From positions 806,001 to 870,000 of the forward strand of contig NZ_NIDE01000005.1 of the NCBI RefSeq assembly GCF_002197845.1: DNA of 64,000 nucleotides. Direction: 5' to 3'. Positions 53,002 through 64,000 of the stretch are shown here, piece after piece. The position numbers were made by a program, and so were the translations under genes. The notes under the pieces are model-generated. The model was not told the origin of the DNA and ran no database searches. It was given only the letters and a program-made list of their open reading frames with translations. The stretch's first letter is position 1; each line of letters opens with the position of its first letter. Source of the DNA: Fimbriiglobus ruber. GTDB lineage: Bacteria; Planctomycetota; Planctomycetia; Gemmatales; Gemmataceae.

Positions 53002-54006
53002 ATGAAGACCGCCAGGCGGAAGCGACAGGTTCCGTCGGCCAAGGTCGCGGACACCCCGTTGACCACCTTTTCCTCGGACCTCCTCACGCCGGAAGAAGAA
53101 CGCGAACTTCTCACCAGCTTCTGGGATTGTAAGAGCGAATTGGTACGGGTTCTGGTCCGTCACTTTCCCGACCTCCGTGCGAACAAGCCGCCCCTCGAAC
53201 CGTGGCCGATGGCCCAGTTCATACGCGATAATTGTGCCGAAGAGGCCCGAGAAGTGCTGGCCGTCCGCCGGCTGCACGACCGGTACGTCCACTTCAAGCA
53301 CCGGCTCGCGTCGGCGAACATCCGGCTGGCGGCCCACGTGGCCAAGCGGTTCCGCCACCACAGTCTGAGCTACTCGGACCTGCTCCAAGAGGCGGTCTGC
53401 GGCCTGATGCAGGCGATCGACCGGTTCGACGTCAGCCACGGCACGCGGCTCGCGACCTACGCGACGTGGTGGATTCGCCAGACCCTGCAGATCGCGGTCG
53501 CCCGGCAGAGCCACCTGGTCAGCCTGAGCCCTCACCACCTGCAAGAGCTCGGCCTGCTGCAGCAAGAAAGTGAAGCCCTGGCCCACGGCGGTAAGCACCT
53601 GCCCAGCCCGCAAGAACTGGCCCACCGCACCGGCAGCAGCCTGGAACACCTGAACCACCTGCAGACGGCCACCCGCACGCCGGTCTCGCTGAACGCCGTC
53701 CTCGACGACGACAGTGATTTCAAGTTGACCGAGGCGATGCCGGACACCCAGACCCTGACCATGCAGGAGAACAACGAGCGGCAGGAAGCGCTCCGGTTCC
53801 TGATGGACAACCTGCGGCCGCGGGAGAAGAAGGTTCTCGACCTCCGCTTCGGCCTGACCGGCAGCGGCACGCACAGCCTGCGGCAGATCGGTCATCTGCT
53901 CCGGATCAGCAAGGAGCGGGTCCGCCAGATTCAGAACCGCGCCCTGGAAAAGCTCCGCGCCAACGCCGAGCGAGTTGGCTGGGAGCCGACCTTGTTACTC
54001 GAGTAA
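53002..54006 (+). CDS. sigma-70 family RNA polymerase sigma factor
   Basis: The 334-residue product has sigma regions 1.2-2.4 (V-C-G-L-M-Q-A-I-D-R-F-D-V-S-H-G-T-R-L, followed by A-T-Y-A-T-W-W-I-R-Q-T-L), a region 3 (L-A-H-R-T-G-S-S-L-E-H-L) and a region 4 with H-S-L-R-Q-I-G-H-L-L-R-I-S-K-E-R-V-R-Q-I-Q. It lacks the long region 1.1 of primary sigma factors, so it is a group 2 or 3 alternative sigma. No anti-sigma gene is adjacent. The start follows AGGGGAAGG. Confidence 0.92.
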   Translation: MKTARRKRQVPSAKVADTPLTTFSSDLLTPEEERELLTSFWDCKSELVRVLVRHFPDLRANKPPLEPWPMAQFIRDNCAEEAREVLAVRRLHDRYVHFKHRLASANIRLAAHVAKRFRHHSLSYSDLLQEAVCGLMQAIDRFDVSHGTRLATYATWWIRQTLQIAVARQSHLVSLSPHHLQELGLLQQESEALAHGGKHLPSPQELAHRTGSSLEHLNHLQTATRTPVSLNAVLDDDSDFKLTEAMPDTQTLTMQENNERQEALRFLMDNLRPREKKVLDLRFGLTGSGTHSLRQIGHLLRISKERVRQIQNRALEKLRANAERVGWEPTLLLE

Positions 54007-54031
54007 TTGACCGCCCCTCTCCACGGTCGTC

Positions 54032-54067
54032 AAAAAGCCGCGGGCCGCAAAGCCCGCGGCTTTTTTG
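54032..54067 (+). terminator. rho-independent terminator of the sigma factor gene
   Basis: The stem A-A-A-A-A-GCCGCGGGC / GCCCGCGGC-TTTTTT is perfect, with a 6-base loop and a T run, 26 bases past the stop. It is the best intrinsic terminator in the window. Confidence 0.95.
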
Positions 54068-54241
54068 CTTCCGCAGGAGAAGCTATCTGAGAAAAACTCG
54101 CGCAGCCGAGTGCCTGGGATCTGGTAGGTTGCCTGGGGAATGAGAACGTGGTTATGCCTTTGGGGTGGGTTGCAAATAAAACGGAAGTGGCTAGAATTCT
54201 GAAGAGACTGACGAGATGAAGAAGCGAATTTCGCGAGATAC

Positions 54242-54283
54242 GTGCCCGTAGCTCAACTGGATAGAGCGTCGGCCTCCGGAGCC
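54242..54283 (+). pseudogene. 5' half of tRNA-Arg(CCG), interrupted at the element boundary
   Basis: The sequence folds as a tRNA up to the anticodon: acceptor strand 54242-54248, U8 A9, D stem GCTC/GAGC (54251-54254 with 54264-54267), anticodon stem TCGGC (54269-54273) and loop CTCCGGA (54274-54280) with anticodon CCG. Its 3' anticodon strand should read GCCGA, but the sequence turns to GCCTCCC. No T arm or acceptor complement follows. The crossover must therefore lie in the anticodon loop or just after it, and the 3' half is probably at the far end of the element, outside the window. Confidence 0.85.
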
Positions 54284-54325
54284 TCCCAGCGGCTCGAACA
54301 ATTTCCTGAAAAACACAGCAAAAAA

Positions 54326-54363
54326 CGCGGACTTGATACTTTTGTCCGCGATTCTTGTCCGCG
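54326..54363. repeat. CGCGGAC/GTCCGCG sites upstream of the integrase
   Basis: One CGCGGAC (54326-54332) and two GTCCGCG copies (54344-54350 and 54357-54363) lie between the split tRNA and int. They can be read as an inverted plus a direct repeat of a 7-base word. Integrase arm-type sites or an Xis/regulator operator are plausible roles. Confidence 0.45.
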
Positions 54364-54368
54364 AAAGA

Positions 54369-54403
54369 AAAAACCCCTCCAAGTGGTAGCACACTTGGAG
54401 GGG
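54369..54403 (-). terminator. minus-strand rho-independent terminator at the element edge
   Basis: The arms CCCCTCCAAGTG (54374-54385) and its complement (54392-54403) form a 12-bp stem followed, on the minus strand, by a run of seven T. It faces the leftward operon of the element and would stop its transcripts before the split tRNA and the host sigma gene. Confidence 0.85.
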
Positions 54404-54472
54404 CGACCCACAAGCGAACCTCATCGGCCCGCGAGCGGTGGACTAACCGTGGTCCCCGTTGAGGTTCCTCTC

Positions 54473-55507
54473 ATGCGACGCCGTGAACCCTTCTTTAAGA
54501 AGTCTCACAACGCTTGGTACGTCGAACTCGACCGCAAGCAAATCCGTCTCGCCGAAACCGAGGCGGAGGCATTTGAAAAGTTCCACGAACTCATGGCCGC
54601 CCGAAAGAAGGCGGAGAAGTTTGTAACCCCGGGCGAACCCGCCCCAGTCACACTCGGCGATCTGCTCGACCAGTTCCTTGCGTCCGGCTTCAAGGGCAGG
54701 GCCGCCCAGACTAAAAGCTGGTACACCGACAAACTCACCCCGTTTGTCACCCACTACGGCCGCGAATTCTCTGTTCCCGACCTGAAGCCCTTTCACGTTG
54801 ACCAGTGGATCGCCGCTCACCCGGACTGGTCATCAGGCACCGCCCGCAACCTCTGGCGCGCCGTCCAGCGGTTGTGTCGGTGGGGCCACCGCAAAGGACT
54901 GATCCCCGAACTCGCGGTCCTGCACCAGGAGAAGCCGAAGGCCGGGCGGCGTGAAGTCGTCATCTCGCCCGAGCAGTACGCCGAGTTGTCCGGGTTCATC
55001 CGCAACGACGAGTTCCGAGCTATTGTCACGCTCTCATGGGAGACCGGTGCGCGTCCGCAGGAACTGATGGCGGCGAAGGTCCGACACCTCGACGCCGGAA
55101 ACAAGCGGCTAGTTTTCCCGCCGCAGGAGAGCAAGGACAAGGACCGCCCGCGGGTGATCTACCTAACTGATGCCGCATTCGACCTGATCCGGCCGAAGAG
55201 CGGCGCTATCTCTGAAGACTACCTGCTGAAAAATTCTGAGGGGCGCCCCTGGACGCCGGACGCCTCGCTTTGCGCGTTCGCCGCACTGCACAAGCGAATG
55301 AAGAAGGCGGGCGTCGACGCACACAAATACTGCCTGTACCACTTCCGGCATTCGTGGCTCGACCGGATGCTGAAAAAAGGCACAGACGTTTTGACCTGCG
55401 CCATCTTGATGGGCCACCGAGACCCATCAATGATCGCGCGGACTTACCAGCACCTCTCACAAAGTCCGGATTACTTACGGGCGGCGCTCAACAAGGCAGT
55501 TGGATGA
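54473..55507 (+). CDS. int: tyrosine recombinase/integrase
   Basis: The 344-residue integrase has a SAM-like core-binding domain at about 58-145 and a catalytic domain at about 165-335. The catalytic residues are R194 (T-G-A-R-P-Q-E-L), R292 and H293 (Y-H-F-R-H), H315 (M-G-H-R-D) and the nucleophile Y325 (A-R-T-Y-Q-H-L). The Y-x-F-R-H form replaces the first His of H-x-x-R-H, a common variant. It lies right beside the split tRNA-Arg, its presumed target. The frame is open to 54242 through the tRNA, but the ATG at 54473 starts the real domain. The excisionase-like gene overlaps its end by 37 bases in convergent orientation. Confidence 0.95.
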   Translation: MRRREPFFKKSHNAWYVELDRKQIRLAETEAEAFEKFHELMAARKKAEKFVTPGEPAPVTLGDLLDQFLASGFKGRAAQTKSWYTDKLTPFVTHYGREFSVPDLKPFHVDQWIAAHPDWSSGTARNLWRAVQRLCRWGHRKGLIPELAVLHQEKPKAGRREVVISPEQYAELSGFIRNDEFRAIVTLSWETGARPQELMAAKVRHLDAGNKRLVFPPQESKDKDRPRVIYLTDAAFDLIRPKSGAISEDYLLKNSEGRPWTPDASLCAFAALHKRMKKAGVDAHKYCLYHFRHSWLDRMLKKGTDVLTCAILMGHRDPSMIARTYQHLSQSPDYLRAALNKAVG

Positions 55508-55692
55508 GCCTCGGCGGACTTCACGGTTCCTTTGGAGAGATACTCGCTGATGGCATCGGGTGGGATAACGATTTTACCCCGCCCGAGCCCTACCCGCTGA
55601 TGTCGCAATTTCTTCGCCGCACAGAGAGCGTAGACGCTCGCTTCGCTCAGCCGCAACCGTGGCGCGGCTTCCTTCACGGTCAACGGTTCCAC
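55471..55692 (-). CDS. excisionase-like HTH protein
   Basis: The 73-residue product from a GTG start has a MerR-type winged-helix-like HTH: E-P-L-T-V-K-E-A-A-P-R-L-R-L-S-E-A-S-V-Y, then K-L-R-H-Q-R-V-G-L-G-R-G-K-I-V-I and I-S-E-Y-L. This is the HTH_17/excisionase pattern. The end overlaps the convergent integrase by 37 bases. AGGTAGG lies about six bases before GTG; the longer ATG frame has no signal. It is the last gene of the leftward operon. Confidence 0.85.
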   Translation of the reverse strand: MEPLTVKEAAPRLRLSEASVYALCAAKKLRHQRVGLGRGKIVIPPDAISEYLSKGTVKSAEAHPTALLSAARK

Positions 55693-55808
55693 AGCACACC
55701 TACCTTTCCGGTTCTGACCCCTTGCGGTCCATCGCGTTCGTTGGCTCCATCCACGTCTCACCAACACTCATGGACCCTGAAGGCCAAAGCCTCCCTCGGC
55801 TCCTCGAC

Positions 55809-58755: not shown

Positions 58756-60216
58756 TTAAAATCGTTGCCGAAACTGCGCCTTGATGAATGTACTTCCATT
58801 GCTGAAGTGGCGGCCGGATTGGAAGACGTACGCTTCAACCTTTCGGCTTTTCCCACCCTTACAGAGAGAAACAAACGCATCGGGAGGAAGCGCGGGGCGC
58901 CACACCTGATTCCAGCTAGCGGTGATGTTGCCCTGCGGTATTCCGAAGAAATCATCCACGATGTCGAAGGGTTGGCTCGTGCTGCTTGAGCCACCGAAGG
59001 TGGTTTGCGTGGTTTCCCCAGCGAAATTTGACAGTAGCTTATTTGTTTCATGGTCTGAGTTTGCGCATCCTATTACCGTCGCATGATTACTAGCCCATGC
59101 CTGAACTTGGTGACGGGCCGCTTCACTGCTGCCTAATGCAGTGACTGCAAGGGGGATGTTTTGGATCACGTTTACGCAGATGCACTTGAACTGCCGGGAT
59201 TGACTAAGAAACATGGCGTCGAGTTCGGGTACGCAGAAATTTGCTGCTTCATCCGTGTAAAAAATGAATGGTCGACACTCGCCCTTGAGGTTTCGCCGCA
59301 TTGCCGCGCGCTGGAACAGGAGCTTAACGGCAACGGCCGCCCATTGAGCGGGTGGTCCAAAAACAGCCCCCGGCACGTCGAAAATCACTAATTTTCCATC
59401 CCTCAAAACTTTTTCGGGGGTGAAAGTAGTGTCTCTCGTGATAAGATCCGCGAAGCGGTTGGAAAGAAGTTTATCTAAAGTATTGAGAGTCACTGATTGT
59501 ATAATGCTTCTTGTTTTGTCAGAAAGTGTTGGCCATTCGTTACTGAACCACTCCCAGGCCATCTTGAACGCGCGGGTCTCACTGTGATTCGCAGAAGCTG
59601 CAAGGACACACTTCGCCGCAAATGAAGAGGCTCGCCACTTCGGGTCTTTGAATTCCTCCGGACTACTCGGAATGGATTGGCAGAATTCGAGAACCTCCTG
59701 AAATCCGACGACCAGTCCCGCCATTCGAATTAGAGCCATCGCGTAACCCATCTGACGCTCTGACGATTCTGGCCAATAGCTATCGGAACTGGTCCGCTGC
59801 CGATTACGATTCGCGGCTTCCATAATCACGCCGAGGAGGGCCTTTGCGCTCTCCACCCCACCGCCTCTCGCACTGAGTTCAGAATCCAGCAGATTGATCC
59901 GCCAGCGACCACCGGGCTTCACGTGAATCAAGTCTGCCAAGCGCCCGGTTTGGCGTATGTAATCGATGTGCCGGGCCGCTTCATCTGGCTTCTGACAAAG
60001 GATCAGAGCCCCCGGGTGTGACGGATGCCCGTAGAGCCCAAGAGCCAGGTTCGAGCAAATCCCTGTGGTTTTCCCCGACCCGATCATCCCACTGATAAAG
60101 ACGTTTGAAAAACATTGCTGCAGCGTGAGCTGATCCTTTCGTCCCGGTCCAATCTTGAGGACGGCGTCTCGGTGAAGGAATAGGCCGAGAATTAACTGAT
60201 AGAGCAACCCGATCAT
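58756..60216 (-). CDS. VirD4/TraG-like type IV coupling ATPase
   Basis: The 486-residue product has one short N-terminal hydrophobic segment (residues 2-13), Walker A G-M-I-G-S-G-K-T-T (43-51), a Walker B F-I-F-Y-T-D-E-A (317-324) and the C-terminal ATPase region with V-I-Q-N-I-P (near 355) and N-H-A-T-V-I-G-C-A-N, as in TraG/TraD recognition domains. Coupling proteins link relaxosomes to the secretion channel. The single short membrane anchor is reduced compared with typical VirD4. ATG with GAGG upstream. Confidence 0.85.
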   Translation of the reverse strand: MIGLLYQLILGLFLHRDAVLKIGPGRKDQLTLQQCFSNVFISGMIGSGKTTGICSNLALGLYGHPSHPGALILCQKPDEAARHIDYIRQTGRLADLIHVKPGGRWRINLLDSELSARGGGVESAKALLGVIMEAANRNRQRTSSDSYWPESSERQMGYAMALIRMAGLVVGFQEVLEFCQSIPSSPEEFKDPKWRASSFAAKCVLAASANHSETRAFKMAWEWFSNEWPTLSDKTRSIIQSVTLNTLDKLLSNRFADLITRDTTFTPEKVLRDGKLVIFDVPGAVFGPPAQWAAVAVKLLFQRAAMRRNLKGECRPFIFYTDEAANFCVPELDAMFLSQSRQFKCICVNVIQNIPLAVTALGSSEAARHQVQAWASNHATVIGCANSDHETNKLLSNFAGETTQTTFGGSSSTSQPFDIVDDFFGIPQGNITASWNQVWRPALPPDAFVSLCKGGKSRKVEAYVFQSGRHFSNGSTFIKAQFRQRF

Positions 60217-60285: not shown

Positions 60286-61134
60286 TCAGGCGTTCTTGAA
60301 GAGGTATGGCAGATCAGCAACGTCCTCGGCGGTCTTCATCTTCTTTACCGCCGAATTGAATTTTTCGGCGAACGCTCGGAGTGCTTCGAGCGTGGGTTTC
60401 TTTGCACTCAAGGCGATGCCCTCATGCTCAAGACCGAGGGGTTTCTCAGCTTTGGTTTTCTTGGAGCCTGCCAGGAGGCGGGTGACCTCAGCCTCTACCC
60501 CTTGGGCACACAAAACGTCCTTCTTGAACTTCTCGGCCACGCAGACTTGTGCTGCGGCGTCTGCGAGACGGCTGATCGCGTATGCCGCCCTCGGCGCGAG
60601 ATCCCCGGCCGCGACCATCGCCTTGCATTGCTCACAGAGCCTCGTAGAAATCGCAAGAATCTTGTGGACTTGGCTGGCATTTGCGTGTACGTGCCGGGCC
60701 AACGTCGAGTCGTTCCAGTTGTTGATTTTTTTGAGATCCAAATAGACCGCCGCAAGCTCCAAGACGGTCATGTCGCGGCGCATCGAATTCGCCAACAATT
60801 GACCGAGAATCAACTCGGCTTCGTTGGGTTTCTCGGCATATACGTAAACGGGGACCGTTTCCAGAAGCGCGAGCAGTGCGGCGAGGAAGCGCGTTAGGCC
60901 ATCAATAATGCGAAGCTTATCTCCCTCGCGGTAGGCGAGGATCGGCACCTGCATGCCGCGGGCCTTCAGGTCGGCCGCAAGCCGGTCCAGGAACTCGCGG
61001 TACTCGGGAGTGTCACGGTCACGAATGTCCTTAAGGGGCTGCAGGAGTTCGGATAGATGAACATGGACCAGGGTGGGCGGCCGAACCGTGTTCCCCTGCG
61101 GCCTCGGATCGGGGGTCGGTGGGTTGGTTGACAT
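60286..61134 (-). CDS. ParB/RepB-like DNA-binding protein
   Basis: The 282-residue product has the ParB N-terminal nuclease-like fold: a D-L-K-A-R-G-M-Q-V-P-I-L box near 55-66 and I-I-D-G-L-T-R-F-L-A-A near 76-86, a variant of the E-x-x-x-G-E-R-R-x-R-A motif. A helical HTH region with L-A-R-H-V-H-A-N-A-S-Q-V-H-K-I-L follows, and the end is Lys-rich. ParA is not adjacent. It probably helps maintain or regulate the element. The ATG at 61134 is preferred over a TTG at 61149. Confidence 0.85.
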   Translation of the reverse strand: MSTNPPTPDPRPQGNTVRPPTLVHVHLSELLQPLKDIRDRDTPEYREFLDRLAADLKARGMQVPILAYREGDKLRIIDGLTRFLAALLALLETVPVYVYAEKPNEAELILGQLLANSMRRDMTVLELAAVYLDLKKINNWNDSTLARHVHANASQVHKILAISTRLCEQCKAMVAAGDLAPRAAYAISRLADAAAQVCVAEKFKKDVLCAQGVEAEVTRLLAGSKKTKAEKPLGLEHEGIALSAKKPTLEALRAFAEKFNSAVKKMKTAEDVADLPYLFKNA

Positions 61135-61276
61135 CGAAGGAATCCTCAAAGTGGTTCCGATTAGTTGGGCGGTATTGTTCGTCGGTGTTTCGAGAATCGT
61201 CCGGCGGTGGGTTGGGATTCCCGTCGTCGCTAAAAGTGTCGTGTGGATTCGGTTCGAGGCGGGGATCTGCGGTCAT
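61031..61276 (-). CDS. possible small Asp/Pro/Asn-rich protein
   Basis: This 81-residue frame (D-D-G-N-P-N-P-P-P-D-D-S-R-N-T-D-E) has a good GAAAGGAAG ribosome binding site five bases upstream of its ATG but overlaps the parB start by about 100 bases in another frame. Low complexity and overlap make it doubtful; it could be a leader peptide regulating parB. Confidence 0.3.
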   Translation of the reverse strand: MTADPRLEPNPHDTFSDDGNPNPPPDDSRNTDEQYRPTNRNHFEDSFDVNQPTDPRSEAAGEHGSAAHPGPCSSIRTPAAP

Positions 61277-61793: not shown

Positions 61794-62447
61794 GTTCGTC
61801 GCCTTTTATGGGGTGGACTCGACGGAACTCAGAAAAAAACTCCAGAGGCAAATGAGGCATTACCACGTACGTTTACACGTCTATGGCTAACCTTAGGGCA
61901 AACGGGAAACGAGGCATGTTCATAAAACTGAAGAAACTCTCACAACCAGTCTCATCGGCGAAGGTTTTCTGTGTGTATAGGCAAGCGACACGGCCTCTAT
62001 TATGTGAACGCGAATTGGGCTTAACCTTGCGCCACTAACACACATTTTTCTCCATTTTTTGCTTTAGTTAGCTATTTAAATTCATGTTGCGTAATGATTT
62101 GCGTTAATTACTCAGAGATTATATTTCAGTGATTGCAAGCCTTGCTAATCCGGAAAGCAGTTCTGTTATACACTCAATAAAGTGTAACAATATCATATTT
62201 ATGCAATATATAATTTGCTTGTATAAATTAAAAATTATTAAAGTATTATACTAATCCTAGAAAACTAATCGCTTCGTCCTGCCCTCCCGGCTCTGAAGCA
62301 GCCCGCAGCCTCCCGCAAGCAAAATGACGGTTTCCGCAGGCGGACCCTCCGTAATTTCTCTTGCGTGACCGCTATCGCTGGTTACGGCCCGCTTCCCTTT
62401 CGCCTCGTCAGGCCGCGTTGATGCGGTCTACAAGCGAAAGGTTCGGT
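61794..62447. other. AT-rich intergenic region of the element
   Basis: About 650 bases without a gene. The part from 62030 to 62260 is strongly AT-rich (with runs such as ATATAATTTGC), in contrast to the rest of the window. A short imperfect hairpin (GTTATACACT / AGTGTAAC) occurs near 62165-62189. It may be a replication or transfer origin, or the promoter region of the divergent genes on each side. Confidence 0.5.
62396..62441 (+). promoter_or_regulatory. leader hairpin covering the ribosome binding site
   Basis: The arms CCTTTCGC (62396-62403) and GCGAAAGG (62434-62441) are perfect complements. A second stem inside (GGCCGC 62411-62416 with GCGGTC 62423-62428) extends the structure. The 3' arm is the presumed ribosome binding site of the methylase gene, which starts seven bases later, so translation could be regulated by folding. 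Confidence 0.5.
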
Positions 62448-64000
62448 ATGCCCCAACTTCAGTATTCGTTGCACTTTCCGTCGATCCCGTCTACAAATGA
62501 GAGCGAACCAACTCATGTCCCTGTGATGGCGAAATCCAAGTCGACTCCGTCGCTTTTTGATTCCGAATTACTCCCAGAGGAACGGTCTCGCACGTTTGCG
62601 GAACGGTTTACGCCGGCACCAGCGCGTCCGTTTACCGAAAAGGTTCGGCCTTCCCGGCCAAGTCTGTTCGATGAGGTGAATGATGAGCAGCAGATCCGTG
62701 AAGAACCGCTCGCGCTGCCACCGCCGGAGGTGATTGAACCAGTAATCGCCTCGGGTGAGAAAGCGAAGGCGAAGGATATTCTGGCCGCCATTTGGGTGCT
62801 TCAAGCGATCGAGCGGGAGAGACGGCCGGCGACCTCGTCGGAGAAAGAGATCCTCGGTCGATTCCCGGGTTTCGGTGCAGTGGCATTGAGCATGTTCCCG
62901 AACCCTGTGACTGGGGAATACAAGGATTCAGGGTGGAAAACTTTCGGCGAGGAACTCCGCAGACTGCTGAACGCCGACGAATACGAGTCGGCCCGCCGAA
63001 CTGTCTTCAACGCCTTTTACACGTCGCCCACGGTCATTAAGGCGATGCACCAAGCCCTAAAACGGCTTGGCGTCCCTGAAGATGCTCTGGTTCTGGAGCC
63101 GGGGTGCGGGACGGGATCTTTCATTTCCCTCGCGCCGGATAGCATGCGGTTCATCGGCGTCGAGCAGGATTCCATTTCGGGACGTATCGCACGCGCAAGA
63201 AACCCAACCCAGGACATACGAATCCAGGATTTCCAGAAGACCCGGTTACCGGAACTTGATGCGGTGATCGGGAATGTGCCCTTCGCCGATGTTCGACTCG
63301 ATTACCACGGCCAGAAGCTTGCCCTGCACGACTTCTTCATCGCCAAGTCAGTGGACTCACTGAAACCGGGAGGTGTGCTGGCGCTCGTCACCTCGCACTA
63401 CACCCTCGATAAACTCAACGGCTCCGTCCGCGAGTACCTGGCTGATAGGGCGGATTTCCTCGGGGCGATCCGGTTGCCAAGCGATGCGTTTAAACGCGAA
63501 GGGACCAGCGTAGTCAGCGACATCGTTTTCATGCGTAAACGAAGTTTAGACGAACCCCCAAGGCACGTTGACGAGTGGCTGAAGGCCGAGCCGACTGAGA
63601 TCGAGGGTACGACGGTCCCGATCAACCGGTACTTCCTCAATCACCCTGAAAACGTCCTCGGTACTTACTCCAGCAAGGACTCGCTTTACGGCAGCGGGTA
63701 CAGCGTCATCTCAAATGGTGATATGGCGGATCAGCTTCGGGAGGCGGTTGGCAAGCTCCCCAGGTTTGAGCAGAAAGCTGAGGAGTTGCCGGCTAAACCT
63801 GTGGAGTCGGTCCCCAGGTTTGTTCCTCCGCCGGCCGAGCCTCACATCTCCGAAGGCTCATTCTTCGTCCACGACTCTCGAATCCATCAGATGGTCGACG
63901 GACAAACCGTGCCTGTCGTTTATGGGGGCTCCGAGCTTTGGGCTCACGGTGGGTTGGTCGGCCGGCGAATGGGAGCGTTGATCGGCCTGCGCGACCTCGC
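62448..64000 (+). CDS. large adenine-specific DNA methylase (N12-class/DarB-like), partial
   Basis: The frame is open from the ATG at 62448 to the window edge with no stop (at least 517 residues). S-adenosylmethionine motif I L-E-P-G-C-G-T-G-S-F lies near residue 215 and the catalytic motif I-G-N-V-P-F near residue 274, in place of the usual N-P-P-Y/F. A-L-V-T-S-H-Y-T-L-D-K and later F-L-G-A-I-R-L-P follow, as in methylases of large mobile-element proteins that continue into a helicase. It may protect the element from host restriction. The rest lies beyond the window. Confidence 0.85.
   Translation, partial: MPQLQYSLHFPSIPSTNESEPTHVPVMAKSKSTPSLFDSELLPEERSRTFAERFTPAPARPFTEKVRPSRPSLFDEVNDEQQIREEPLALPPPEVIEPVIASGEKAKAKDILAAIWVLQAIERERRPATSSEKEILGRFPGFGAVALSMFPNPVTGEYKDSGWKTFGEELRRLLNADEYESARRTVFNAFYTSPTVIKAMHQALKRLGVPEDALVLEPGCGTGSFISLAPDSMRFIGVEQDSISGRIARARNPTQDIRIQDFQKTRLPELDAVIGNVPFADVRLDYHGQKLALHDFFIAKSVDSLKPGGVLALVTSHYTLDKLNGSVREYLADRADFLGAIRLPSDAFKREGTSVVSDIVFMRKRSLDEPPRHVDEWLKAEPTEIEGTTVPINRYFLNHPENVLGTYSSKDSLYGSGYSVISNGDMADQLREAVGKLPRFEQKAEELPAKPVESVPRFVPPPAEPHISEGSFFVHDSRIHQMVDGQTVPVVYGGSELWAHGGLVGRRMGALIGLRDL

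What the first reader, a model, noticed from the sequence alone, without database searches (positions are those of the whole stretch)
54242..54283. tRNA-Arg(CCG) split in its anticodon arm by an integrated element
The tRNA reads normally through the anticodon CCG and the start of the 3' anticodon stem, then tRNA sequence stops and an integrase gene follows. Usually an element restores a full tRNA 3' end at the integrase-proximal junction; here the integrase side keeps only the 5' half. That implies either that the intact 3' half lies at the far junction or that the only copy is destroyed.
Basis: partly seen in the sequence, partly recalled or inferred. Interest (0 to 1): 0.75.

Follow-up and report, generated by a model that had tools for sequence, protein, structure and literature searches.

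The report
Prophage that restores tRNA's front half
A 100-kilobase prophage-like element in a planctomycete cut a tRNA-arginine gene at its anticodon and, instead of replacing the gene's back half as most such elements do, gave the surviving back half a new front half and a new promoter, so the tRNA remains whole 100 kilobases away; this is an uncommon but already recognised way of inserting.

Summary
Window 54242-54283 is exactly nt 1-42 of tRNA-Arg(CCG), cut three bases past the anticodon loop, beside a tyrosine integrase gene (54473-55507). The gene is not destroyed: a complete tRNA-Arg(CCG) lies 100,311 bp downstream on the same contig, with those 42 bases identical. Candidate integrase arm repeats (TTGTCCGCG) occur only at these two ends of the 103.8 kb examined. 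The element's far end carries promoter-like site + tRNA 5' half, so integration gave the chromosomal 3' half a new 5' half: the mirror image of the usual 3'-restoring design. The attP predicted by joining the two ends aligns with one uninterrupted sequence beside a 73%-identical integrase in a second planctomycete. These two integrases nest among integrases lying beside full Arg tRNAs; 2 of 46 integrase loci examined have a 5' half. A sister element in the same genome, at tRNA-Phe, with a related phage body, has the ordinary polarity. The kind is known: Islander counts 159 of 3,919 islands with 5' fragments, and archaeal pTN3 does the same. So this is a well-resolved new member of a minority class; notable are the polarity switch within one integrase clade and possible promoter scars at this tRNA in other genomes.

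The parts
54170..54197 (+). Native (chromosomal) promoter-like site TTGCAA-16-TAGAAT, left on the 5' half
   Evidence: only promoter-like site found in 54000-54480; shuffles mean 0.1
54242..54283 (+). attL: nt 1-42 of tRNA-Arg(CCG), the displaced 5' half; partner is the complete gene at G000:C5:960553 (outside the window)
   Evidence: 100% over 42 nt, next place in genome 85% over 40; exact identity 0 bases upstream and 42 downstream
54269..54283 (+). Inferred crossover core: 5' stem TCGGC, anticodon loop CTCCGGA (54274-54280), GCC of the 3' stem
   Evidence: shared by attL, attR and the G018 site; crossover position inferred
54342..54363 (+). Two candidate arm-type direct repeats TTGTCCGCG (54342, 54355); matching copies lie at the far end (C5:960412, 960423, and a variant TCTGTCCGCG just after)
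   Evidence: only places in the 103.8 kb fetched; TGTCC offsets +59,+72 here against +60,+73 in the G018 site, with motif TTGTCCCTAA; role as arm sites inferred
54373..54404 (-). Terminator-like hairpin between arm sites and integrase, facing the tRNA side
   Evidence: 13 pairs plus T tail; fold of 54362-54475 z -4.70
54473..55507 (+). Tyrosine integrase, 344 aa
   Evidence: PF00589 E 6.8e-14; phrog_1 integrase 4.4e-40
55471..55767 (-). Excisionase-like HTH protein, convergent with and overlapping the integrase 3' end
   Evidence: PF12728 HTH_17 E 1.3e-9; phrog_66 excisionase and transcriptional regulator E 0.00069
58756..60216 (-). TraG/TraD-like coupling ATPase of the element
   Evidence: PF12696 E 1.4e-6
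60286..61149 (-). ParB-like protein of the element
   Evidence: PF17762 HTH_ParB E 4e-6
62361..64000 (+). Start of a 999-aa methyltransferase/helicase-like protein of the element (runs past the window end)
   Evidence: PF04851 E 4.4e-6; mads_2 model 1.9e-14

Best explanation
Window 54242-54283 is attL of a 100.3-kb integrated element (G000:C5:860242-960553; window 54242 onward, running past the window end). Shown: both ends carry the same 42 bases of tRNA-Arg(CCG); the far end has a complete tRNA preceded by an element-borne promoter-like site; the same repeats flank both ends. Inferred: the tyrosine integrase recombined the anticodon loop of the chromosomal gene with an attP holding promoter + tRNA 5' half. 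The chromosomal 5' half and its old promoter were displaced to the integrase side, and the chromosomal 3' half was completed by the element's 5' half. The tRNA is then transcribed from the element's promoter, and excision would restore the original gene.
For: (1) Exact 42-nt direct repeat 100,311 bp apart, same strand, same contig. (2) Far copy is a complete tRNA-Arg(CCG) with the only promoter-like site of its region, TTGTAA-16-TAAAAT (shuffles mean 0.2). (3) TTGTCCGCG at 860342 and 860355 and at 960412 and 960423, nowhere else in 103,825 bp. (4) attP made by joining the two ends aligns over its about 400 bp with an uninterrupted sequence beside the 73% identical integrase in G018. (5) Joining the chromosomal flanks gives a complete tRNA-Arg(CCG). 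(6) Between the ends: TraG/D-like, TrwC relaxase and ParB-like genes, and a tailed-phage gene set: RecT, terminase, portal, head protease, baseplate, endolysin.
Against: No unoccupied relative of this locus was found: the upstream sigma-type gene has no conserved downstream neighbour in the 29 relatives' loci compared, two of which had 3 and 40 bases of flank. The right flank is 1.2 kb only, as the contig ends there. The imperfect 12-13-base similarity upstream of nt 1 blurs the edge slightly. The promoter-like sites are consensus matches and the terminator-like site after the complete gene is weak (1 found, 0.5 expected). No excision or transcription data. IMG/VR calls only the last 50,023 bp viral, so phage and relaxase-bearing halves could have been acquired separately, though the sister at C10 also has the relaxase followed by phage genes.
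Confidence: 0.93

Rival explanations
1. The only tRNA-Arg(CCG) is destroyed by the insertion and the cell depends on another isoacceptor.
For: The window itself holds only the 5' half.
Against: A complete tRNA-Arg(CCG) with a promoter-like site lies at the far end.
Confidence: 0.01
2. An ordinary 3'-restoring element whose integrase-side tRNA was later truncated, with an unrelated tRNA-Arg(CCG) downstream.
For: Of 46 related integrase loci, 26 have a full same-strand tRNA and 8 a 3' half or piece.
Against: Ordinary integration leaves a 3' fragment, not a complete gene with its own promoter-like site, at the far end. The TCCCAGC edge of the cut is identical in a second genome with a 73% identical integrase, and the repeats flank both ends. 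The 3'-half pattern finds only the complete gene in G000.
Confidence: 0.03
3. Composite: a relaxase-bearing mobilisable element and a tailed prophage integrated separately, so the 100 kb is not one mobile unit.
For: Left half has TrwC relaxase, TraG/D-like and ParB-like genes; right half is phage; IMG/VR calls only the right 50 kb.
Against: No third tRNA-Arg(CCG) half or arm repeat within the 100 kb. The sister at C10 has the same relaxase, 83-89% identical in its three pieces, followed by the same phage genes, and the sister at tRNA-Phe appears to span 110 kb between its own att sites.
Confidence: 0.25

Closest known systems
Islander tDNA islands with a 5' fragment (Hudson, Lau and Williams 2015, PMC4383910; abstract and parts 1 and 2 of 3 of the main section read)
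   Same: tRNA gene at one end, its 5' fragment upstream at the other, integrase inside; 159 of 3,919 islands
   Different: Islander tabulates these but, in the parts read, describes no promoter replacement and no planctomycete case; I could not check its entries
pTN3-type archaeal integrases (PMC8371274 passages; PMC5495485 passages)
   Same: attB is the 5' half of a tRNA gene, 41 bp shared (42 here), and the rebuilt tRNA is separated from its original promoter
   Different: integration of pTN3 disrupts its integrase gene; here attP lies 5' of an intact integrase gene and the new promoter-like site is a separate element-borne one
Ordinary anticodon-side tRNA integration, for example the sister element at tRNA-Phe in this genome (C5:475148-585611)
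   Same: related phage gene set, related integrase (35-36%), integrase just downstream of tRNA sequence
   Different: full tRNA on the integrase side and a 3' half (47-bp repeat) at the far end
SXT/prfC type integration, in which the element gives a host protein gene a new 5' end and promoter (recalled, not looked up)
   Same: host gene receives a new 5' end and promoter
   Different: protein gene target, not tRNA

Membership tests
5'-fragment tDNA island (Islander class) | Complete tDNA and its cognate fragment on the same replicon in the same orientation | tested here: met
   C5:860242-860283 and C5:960553, both +
5'-fragment tDNA island (Islander class) | 5' fragment lies upstream of the complete tDNA | tested here: met
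   100,311 bp upstream
5'-fragment tDNA island (Islander class) | Fragment includes the end of the tDNA, not an internal piece | tested here: met
   nt 1-42
5'-fragment tDNA island (Islander class) | Tyrosine integrase gene inside; 2-200 kb long | tested here: met
   PF00589; 100.3 kb
Temperate tailed phage | Terminase, portal, head protease, tail and lysis genes | tested here: met
   PHROGs hits within C5:930473-958729
Temperate tailed phage | Excises and packages the unit bounded by attL and attR | not testable with these tools
   needs induction
Integrative and conjugative element | Relaxase and coupling protein | tested here: met
   TrwC E 3.4e-72, TraG-D_C E 1.4e-6
Integrative and conjugative element | Mating-pair formation genes (VirB4 and partners) | tested here: inconclusive
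   none among the 10 proteins given to Pfam, but most of the 132 ORFs called in 858001-961825 were not scanned
pTN3-type suicidal integrase | Integration disrupts the integrase gene | tested here: not met
   integrase ORF is intact and begins about 190 bp after the 42-nt repeat

The most novel reading that the evidence does not exclude
Within one clade of planctomycete integrases the polarity of tRNA repair flipped from 3'-restoring to 5'-restoring at the same class of target (Arg tRNAs). Since each 5'-type integration replaces the tRNA promoter, past elements have repeatedly re-promotered tRNA-Arg(CCG) and left promoter scars: related promoter regions stand upstream of this tRNA in several genomes where no separate 5' half was found, and in G018 even the displaced 5' half has an element-type promoter. 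A candidate integrase arm site lies within 2 bp of the new -35 box, so integrase binding could also regulate the tRNA.
Probability: 0.3. Interest if true: 0.6.

Novelty: new member of a known kind. Interest (0 to 1): 0.36.

Why it matters
It gives a cleanly mapped bacterial case of the minority polarity of tRNA-gene integration, with both ends, an attP-like relative, and a sister element of the ordinary polarity in the same genome. That makes testable how an integrase family changes which half of a tRNA its element must carry, and whether mobile elements rewire expression of a tRNA gene. CGG, the codon this tRNA reads, is the commonest Arg codon in 24 long ORFs of the chromosomal part of the window (400 of 1,042 Arg codons).

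Tried and rejected
Destroyed-gene reading: rejected. Search for an empty site through the sigma-type gene (window 53002-54006; recognised by eye): the gene is in 90 of 95 family genomes, but downstream of it the 29 relatives' loci compared gave no match to our left flank and only a 25-bp match to our right flank in one (L130, E 1.4e-5), which I take as a dispersed repeat; no empty site found. Integrase in IMG/VR: 12 candidate stretches, 0 relatives. Integrase in genome contigs: 2 loci, one of them the G018 contig. The cut-edge pattern in a phylum sample: 1 of 392 genomes, our own (no other genome of our family was in that sample, so G018 was not tested there). G018 as one element spanning C96 and C187: consistent with contig ends, not shown; C187 shares with our element only a kinase domain, and C96 shares only the integrase-excisionase-att region and repeated gene families. 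G009 has two complete tRNA-Arg(CCG) 25.5 kb apart with phage-like genes (by eye) between: not resolved. The stranded 5' half plus its new neighbour does not fold better than shuffles as RNA (z -0.09). Tycheposons considered from memory as another odd tRNA arrangement; the one paper seen in passages (PMC10872708) does not state the polarity, so no claim is made. Williams 2002 and Mageeney 2020 are not held.

The 5'/3' counts at tRNA-Arg(CCG) rest on patterns with up to 3 mismatches. The 3' list was cut by the tool, so the 3' count is a lower bound. Three further 5' matches with 3 mismatches (G080:C289, G085:C311, G086:C21) have no 3' match at the same place and were not resolved. In the promoter-profile test four sequences trained the model and match by construction; only the other 31 are a test. 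The tRNA scan scored 150 of 299 candidates, so some tRNA genes may be missing from the count.

Full report
What is there. Window 54242-54283 holds nt 1-42 of a tRNA-Arg(CCG): acceptor strand, D arm, the 5' anticodon stem, the anticodon loop and three bases of the 3' stem, then unrelated sequence. ARAGORN sees no tRNA in the window. An integrase gene (54473-55507, PF00589) follows, reading away from the tRNA, with a convergent excisionase-like HTH gene (55471-55767). Left of the fragment is a sigma-factor-type gene (by eye) found in 90 of 95 genomes of the family, so I take the left side as chromosome.

The other end. Searching the genome with the junction gave a second exact copy of the 42 bases at C5:960553, same strand, 100,311 bp downstream; the next-best place is 85% over 40 nt. 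With up to 3 mismatches over 32 nt there are only these two places. The second copy is a complete tRNA-Arg(CCG). Exact identity stops at nt 1 on the upstream side and after nt 42 on the downstream side; BLAST adds 12-13 imperfect, gapped bases upstream. The 42 bases include the whole anticodon loop, one of the crossover positions described for tyrosine integrases in tRNA genes (PMC4383910; PMC8371274 passages).

Direction of repair. In the common design the element carries the 3' half, leaving a complete tRNA on one side and a 3' fragment on the other. Here the element carries the 5' half and what precedes it. Each end has one promoter-like site: TTGCAA-16-TAGAAT before the stranded half and TTGTAA-16-TAAAAT before the complete gene. 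These are consensus matches, not proof of transcription. A weak terminator-like site follows the complete gene (1 found, 0.5 expected).

Same element at both ends. TTGTCCGCG occurs twice on the integrase side (860342, 860355) and twice before the complete tRNA (960412, 960423; a third copy reads TCTGTCCGCG), and nowhere else in the 103,825 bp fetched. I read these as arm-type integrase sites (inference). The closest integrase relative (73%, G018:C96, record JAIOPV010000198.1, a Planctomycetota MAG) sits beside the same 5' half with the same edge TCCCAGC. The attP obtained by joining our two ends aligns with the continuous G018 sequence through left arm, promoter, 5' half, right arm, hairpin and leader; the repeats sit at matching distances, with the motif changed on both sides to TTGTCCC. 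A layout predicted from two ends 100 kb apart is thus found in one piece in another genome. Beyond this region C96 shares with our element only repeated gene families.

What G018:C96 is. It could be a free or tandem copy, or an integrated copy whose flanking promoter is a relic of an earlier element. Genes on one side look chromosomal to my eye (a MiaA-like protein and others, not searched). G018's complete tRNA-Arg(CCG), on C187, is identical to ours over nt 1-42 and also has an element-type promoter region with GTCC repeats. C96 and C187 could be the two ends of one element, but no contig joins them.

How unusual in its family. I classified the sequence within 900 bp upstream of 46 related integrase genes: all 30 loci and two more matches in this genome, and the 14 new loci. 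Matches without a locus were not classified. Result: 5' half 2; full tRNA on the same strand 26; 3' half or 3' piece 8; cut by a contig end 1; full tRNA on the opposite strand 2; none 7 (two of these have under 900 bp of flank). In a tree of 32 of them the two 5'-half integrases are sisters (100/99), inside a clade of five (99/96) whose other three members lie beside full Arg tRNAs, one of them the CCG tRNA. At tRNA-Arg(CCG) itself, 95 family genomes show 2 clear 5' halves (G000, G018) and at least 13 3' halves in 11 genomes (hand count: G010, G011, G013, G014 twice, G019, G022, G023, G026, G051 twice, G055, G087); three more weak 5' matches were not resolved.

A natural control in the same contig. 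A sister element begins at a complete tRNA-Phe (C5:475148) followed by an integrase 35-36% identical to ours; a 47-bp 3' half of that tRNA lies 110 kb on (C5:585565-585611), followed by another integrase. Between them is a phage gene set 73-95% identical to ours over most of the phage region. I did not fetch C5:476721-530000, so that this is one element is inferred. Other relatives are at C10 (relaxase followed by phage), C16, and a broken one at C5:657521.

Cargo. The left part has a TraG/D-like ATPase, a ParB-like protein, a methyltransferase/helicase-like protein and a TrwC relaxase; the right part has RecT, terminase, portal, head protease, baseplate and endolysin. Defence-type hits among 10 proteins scanned include a TIR effector model (E 8e-12), an Aga_REase model (1.9e-27) and kinase models. 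IMG/VR lists a 50,023-bp virus record whose 5,038 bp read here are the end of this contig; the att sites suggest that the unit is twice as long.

Promoter scars. Upstream of 29 relatives' tRNA-Arg(CCG), eight share a conserved upstream region (G016, G019, G021, G023, G026, G090, G091, G092; G035 weakly), which I take as native. A profile from four element-type promoter regions (G000 far end, G018 twice, G017) finds a related region in G011 (3.7e-10), G013 (5.6e-7), G012 (6.1e-7), G088 (7.5e-4) and G008 (0.0037), that is 5 of 31 non-training upstream regions at E below 0.01, and in none of 82 upstream regions of other tRNAs (best E 11). The distance to the tRNA is similar in four; in G012 it is about 50 bp shorter. 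G009 is weak (0.026), and our own chromosomal promoter does not match (0.38). No separate 5' half was found in those five genomes. Scars of past 5'-type elements would explain this; so would capture of an ancestral promoter of this tRNA by the element. G008, G011, G012 and G013 belong to the same genus group (g6) as five native-type genomes, which leans towards replacement but does not settle it.

Known or new. Islander reports 159 islands with 5' fragments and 3,760 with 3' fragments, of 3,919 (PMC4383910, Table 1). The archaeal pTN3 integrase uses the 5' half, shares 41 bp and rebuilds the tRNA away from its original promoter, and a review says a similar situation has been seldom met in bacteria (PMC5495485 and PMC8371274, passages). 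The mechanism is therefore known. For planctomycetes, one search listed 12 of 45 papers holding at least 4 of 5 terms and none of the titles concerned such elements; none was read. Searches on the general theme gave the papers cited. This is a limited search and no claim of absence from print is made.

tRNA count. ARAGORN over the places of the 83 Rfam tRNA hits (which scored 150 of 299 candidates) gives 86 predictions, with two tRNA-Arg(CCG): C5:960553 and C6:30437. The C6 copy did not match the 32-nt pattern, so it is divergent. On this count loss of the C5 gene would not leave the genome without a CCG anticodon.

Noticed in passing
window 54417-54466 (and L047): Strong leader hairpin AACCTCA...TGAGGTT directly before the integrase start, next to a second hairpin; aligned and largely kept in G018. 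The stretch 54362-54475 folds with z -4.70.
   Followed up: partly
G000:C5:475148-585611 and on: Sister element at tRNA-Phe with a 47-bp 3' half 110 kb on, followed at once by another integrase (tandem array).
   Followed up: partly
L282 12744-15564 (C5:582744-585564): Between the sister's phage end and its 3' half lie two tRNA predictions, Ser(act) and a 'Stop(tta)' suppressor-like one, and what reads like a transposase gene (by eye).
   Followed up: no
L268 (C10), L269 (C16), L270-L273 (C5): At least five related tailed prophages in one genome, ours included; one has an in-frame TAG in its terminase and one a broken terminase.
   Followed up: no
L073 and L074: Related integrases with a complete tRNA on the opposite strand, its 5' end towards the integrase: possible further 5'-side elements.
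   Followed up: no
L111 (G009:C1:5370000-5388000): Two complete tRNA-Arg(CCG) 25.5 kb apart on the same strand with phage-like genes between; the upstream copy has a different anticodon stem.
   Followed up: partly
G000:C4:281282-283409 (L285): Dense array of tRNA genes, many with low scores.
   Followed up: no
L045 2746-3003: Just downstream of the complete tRNA lies what reads like the C-terminal end of another tyrosine integrase, perhaps the relic of an ordinary element (by eye).
   Followed up: no
G018:C187 17565-32657 (L107, L283): Genes that look like metal efflux and resistance (P-type ATPase, RND pump, CDF transporter) upstream of the complete tRNA-Arg(CCG), possible island cargo (by eye).
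   Followed up: no
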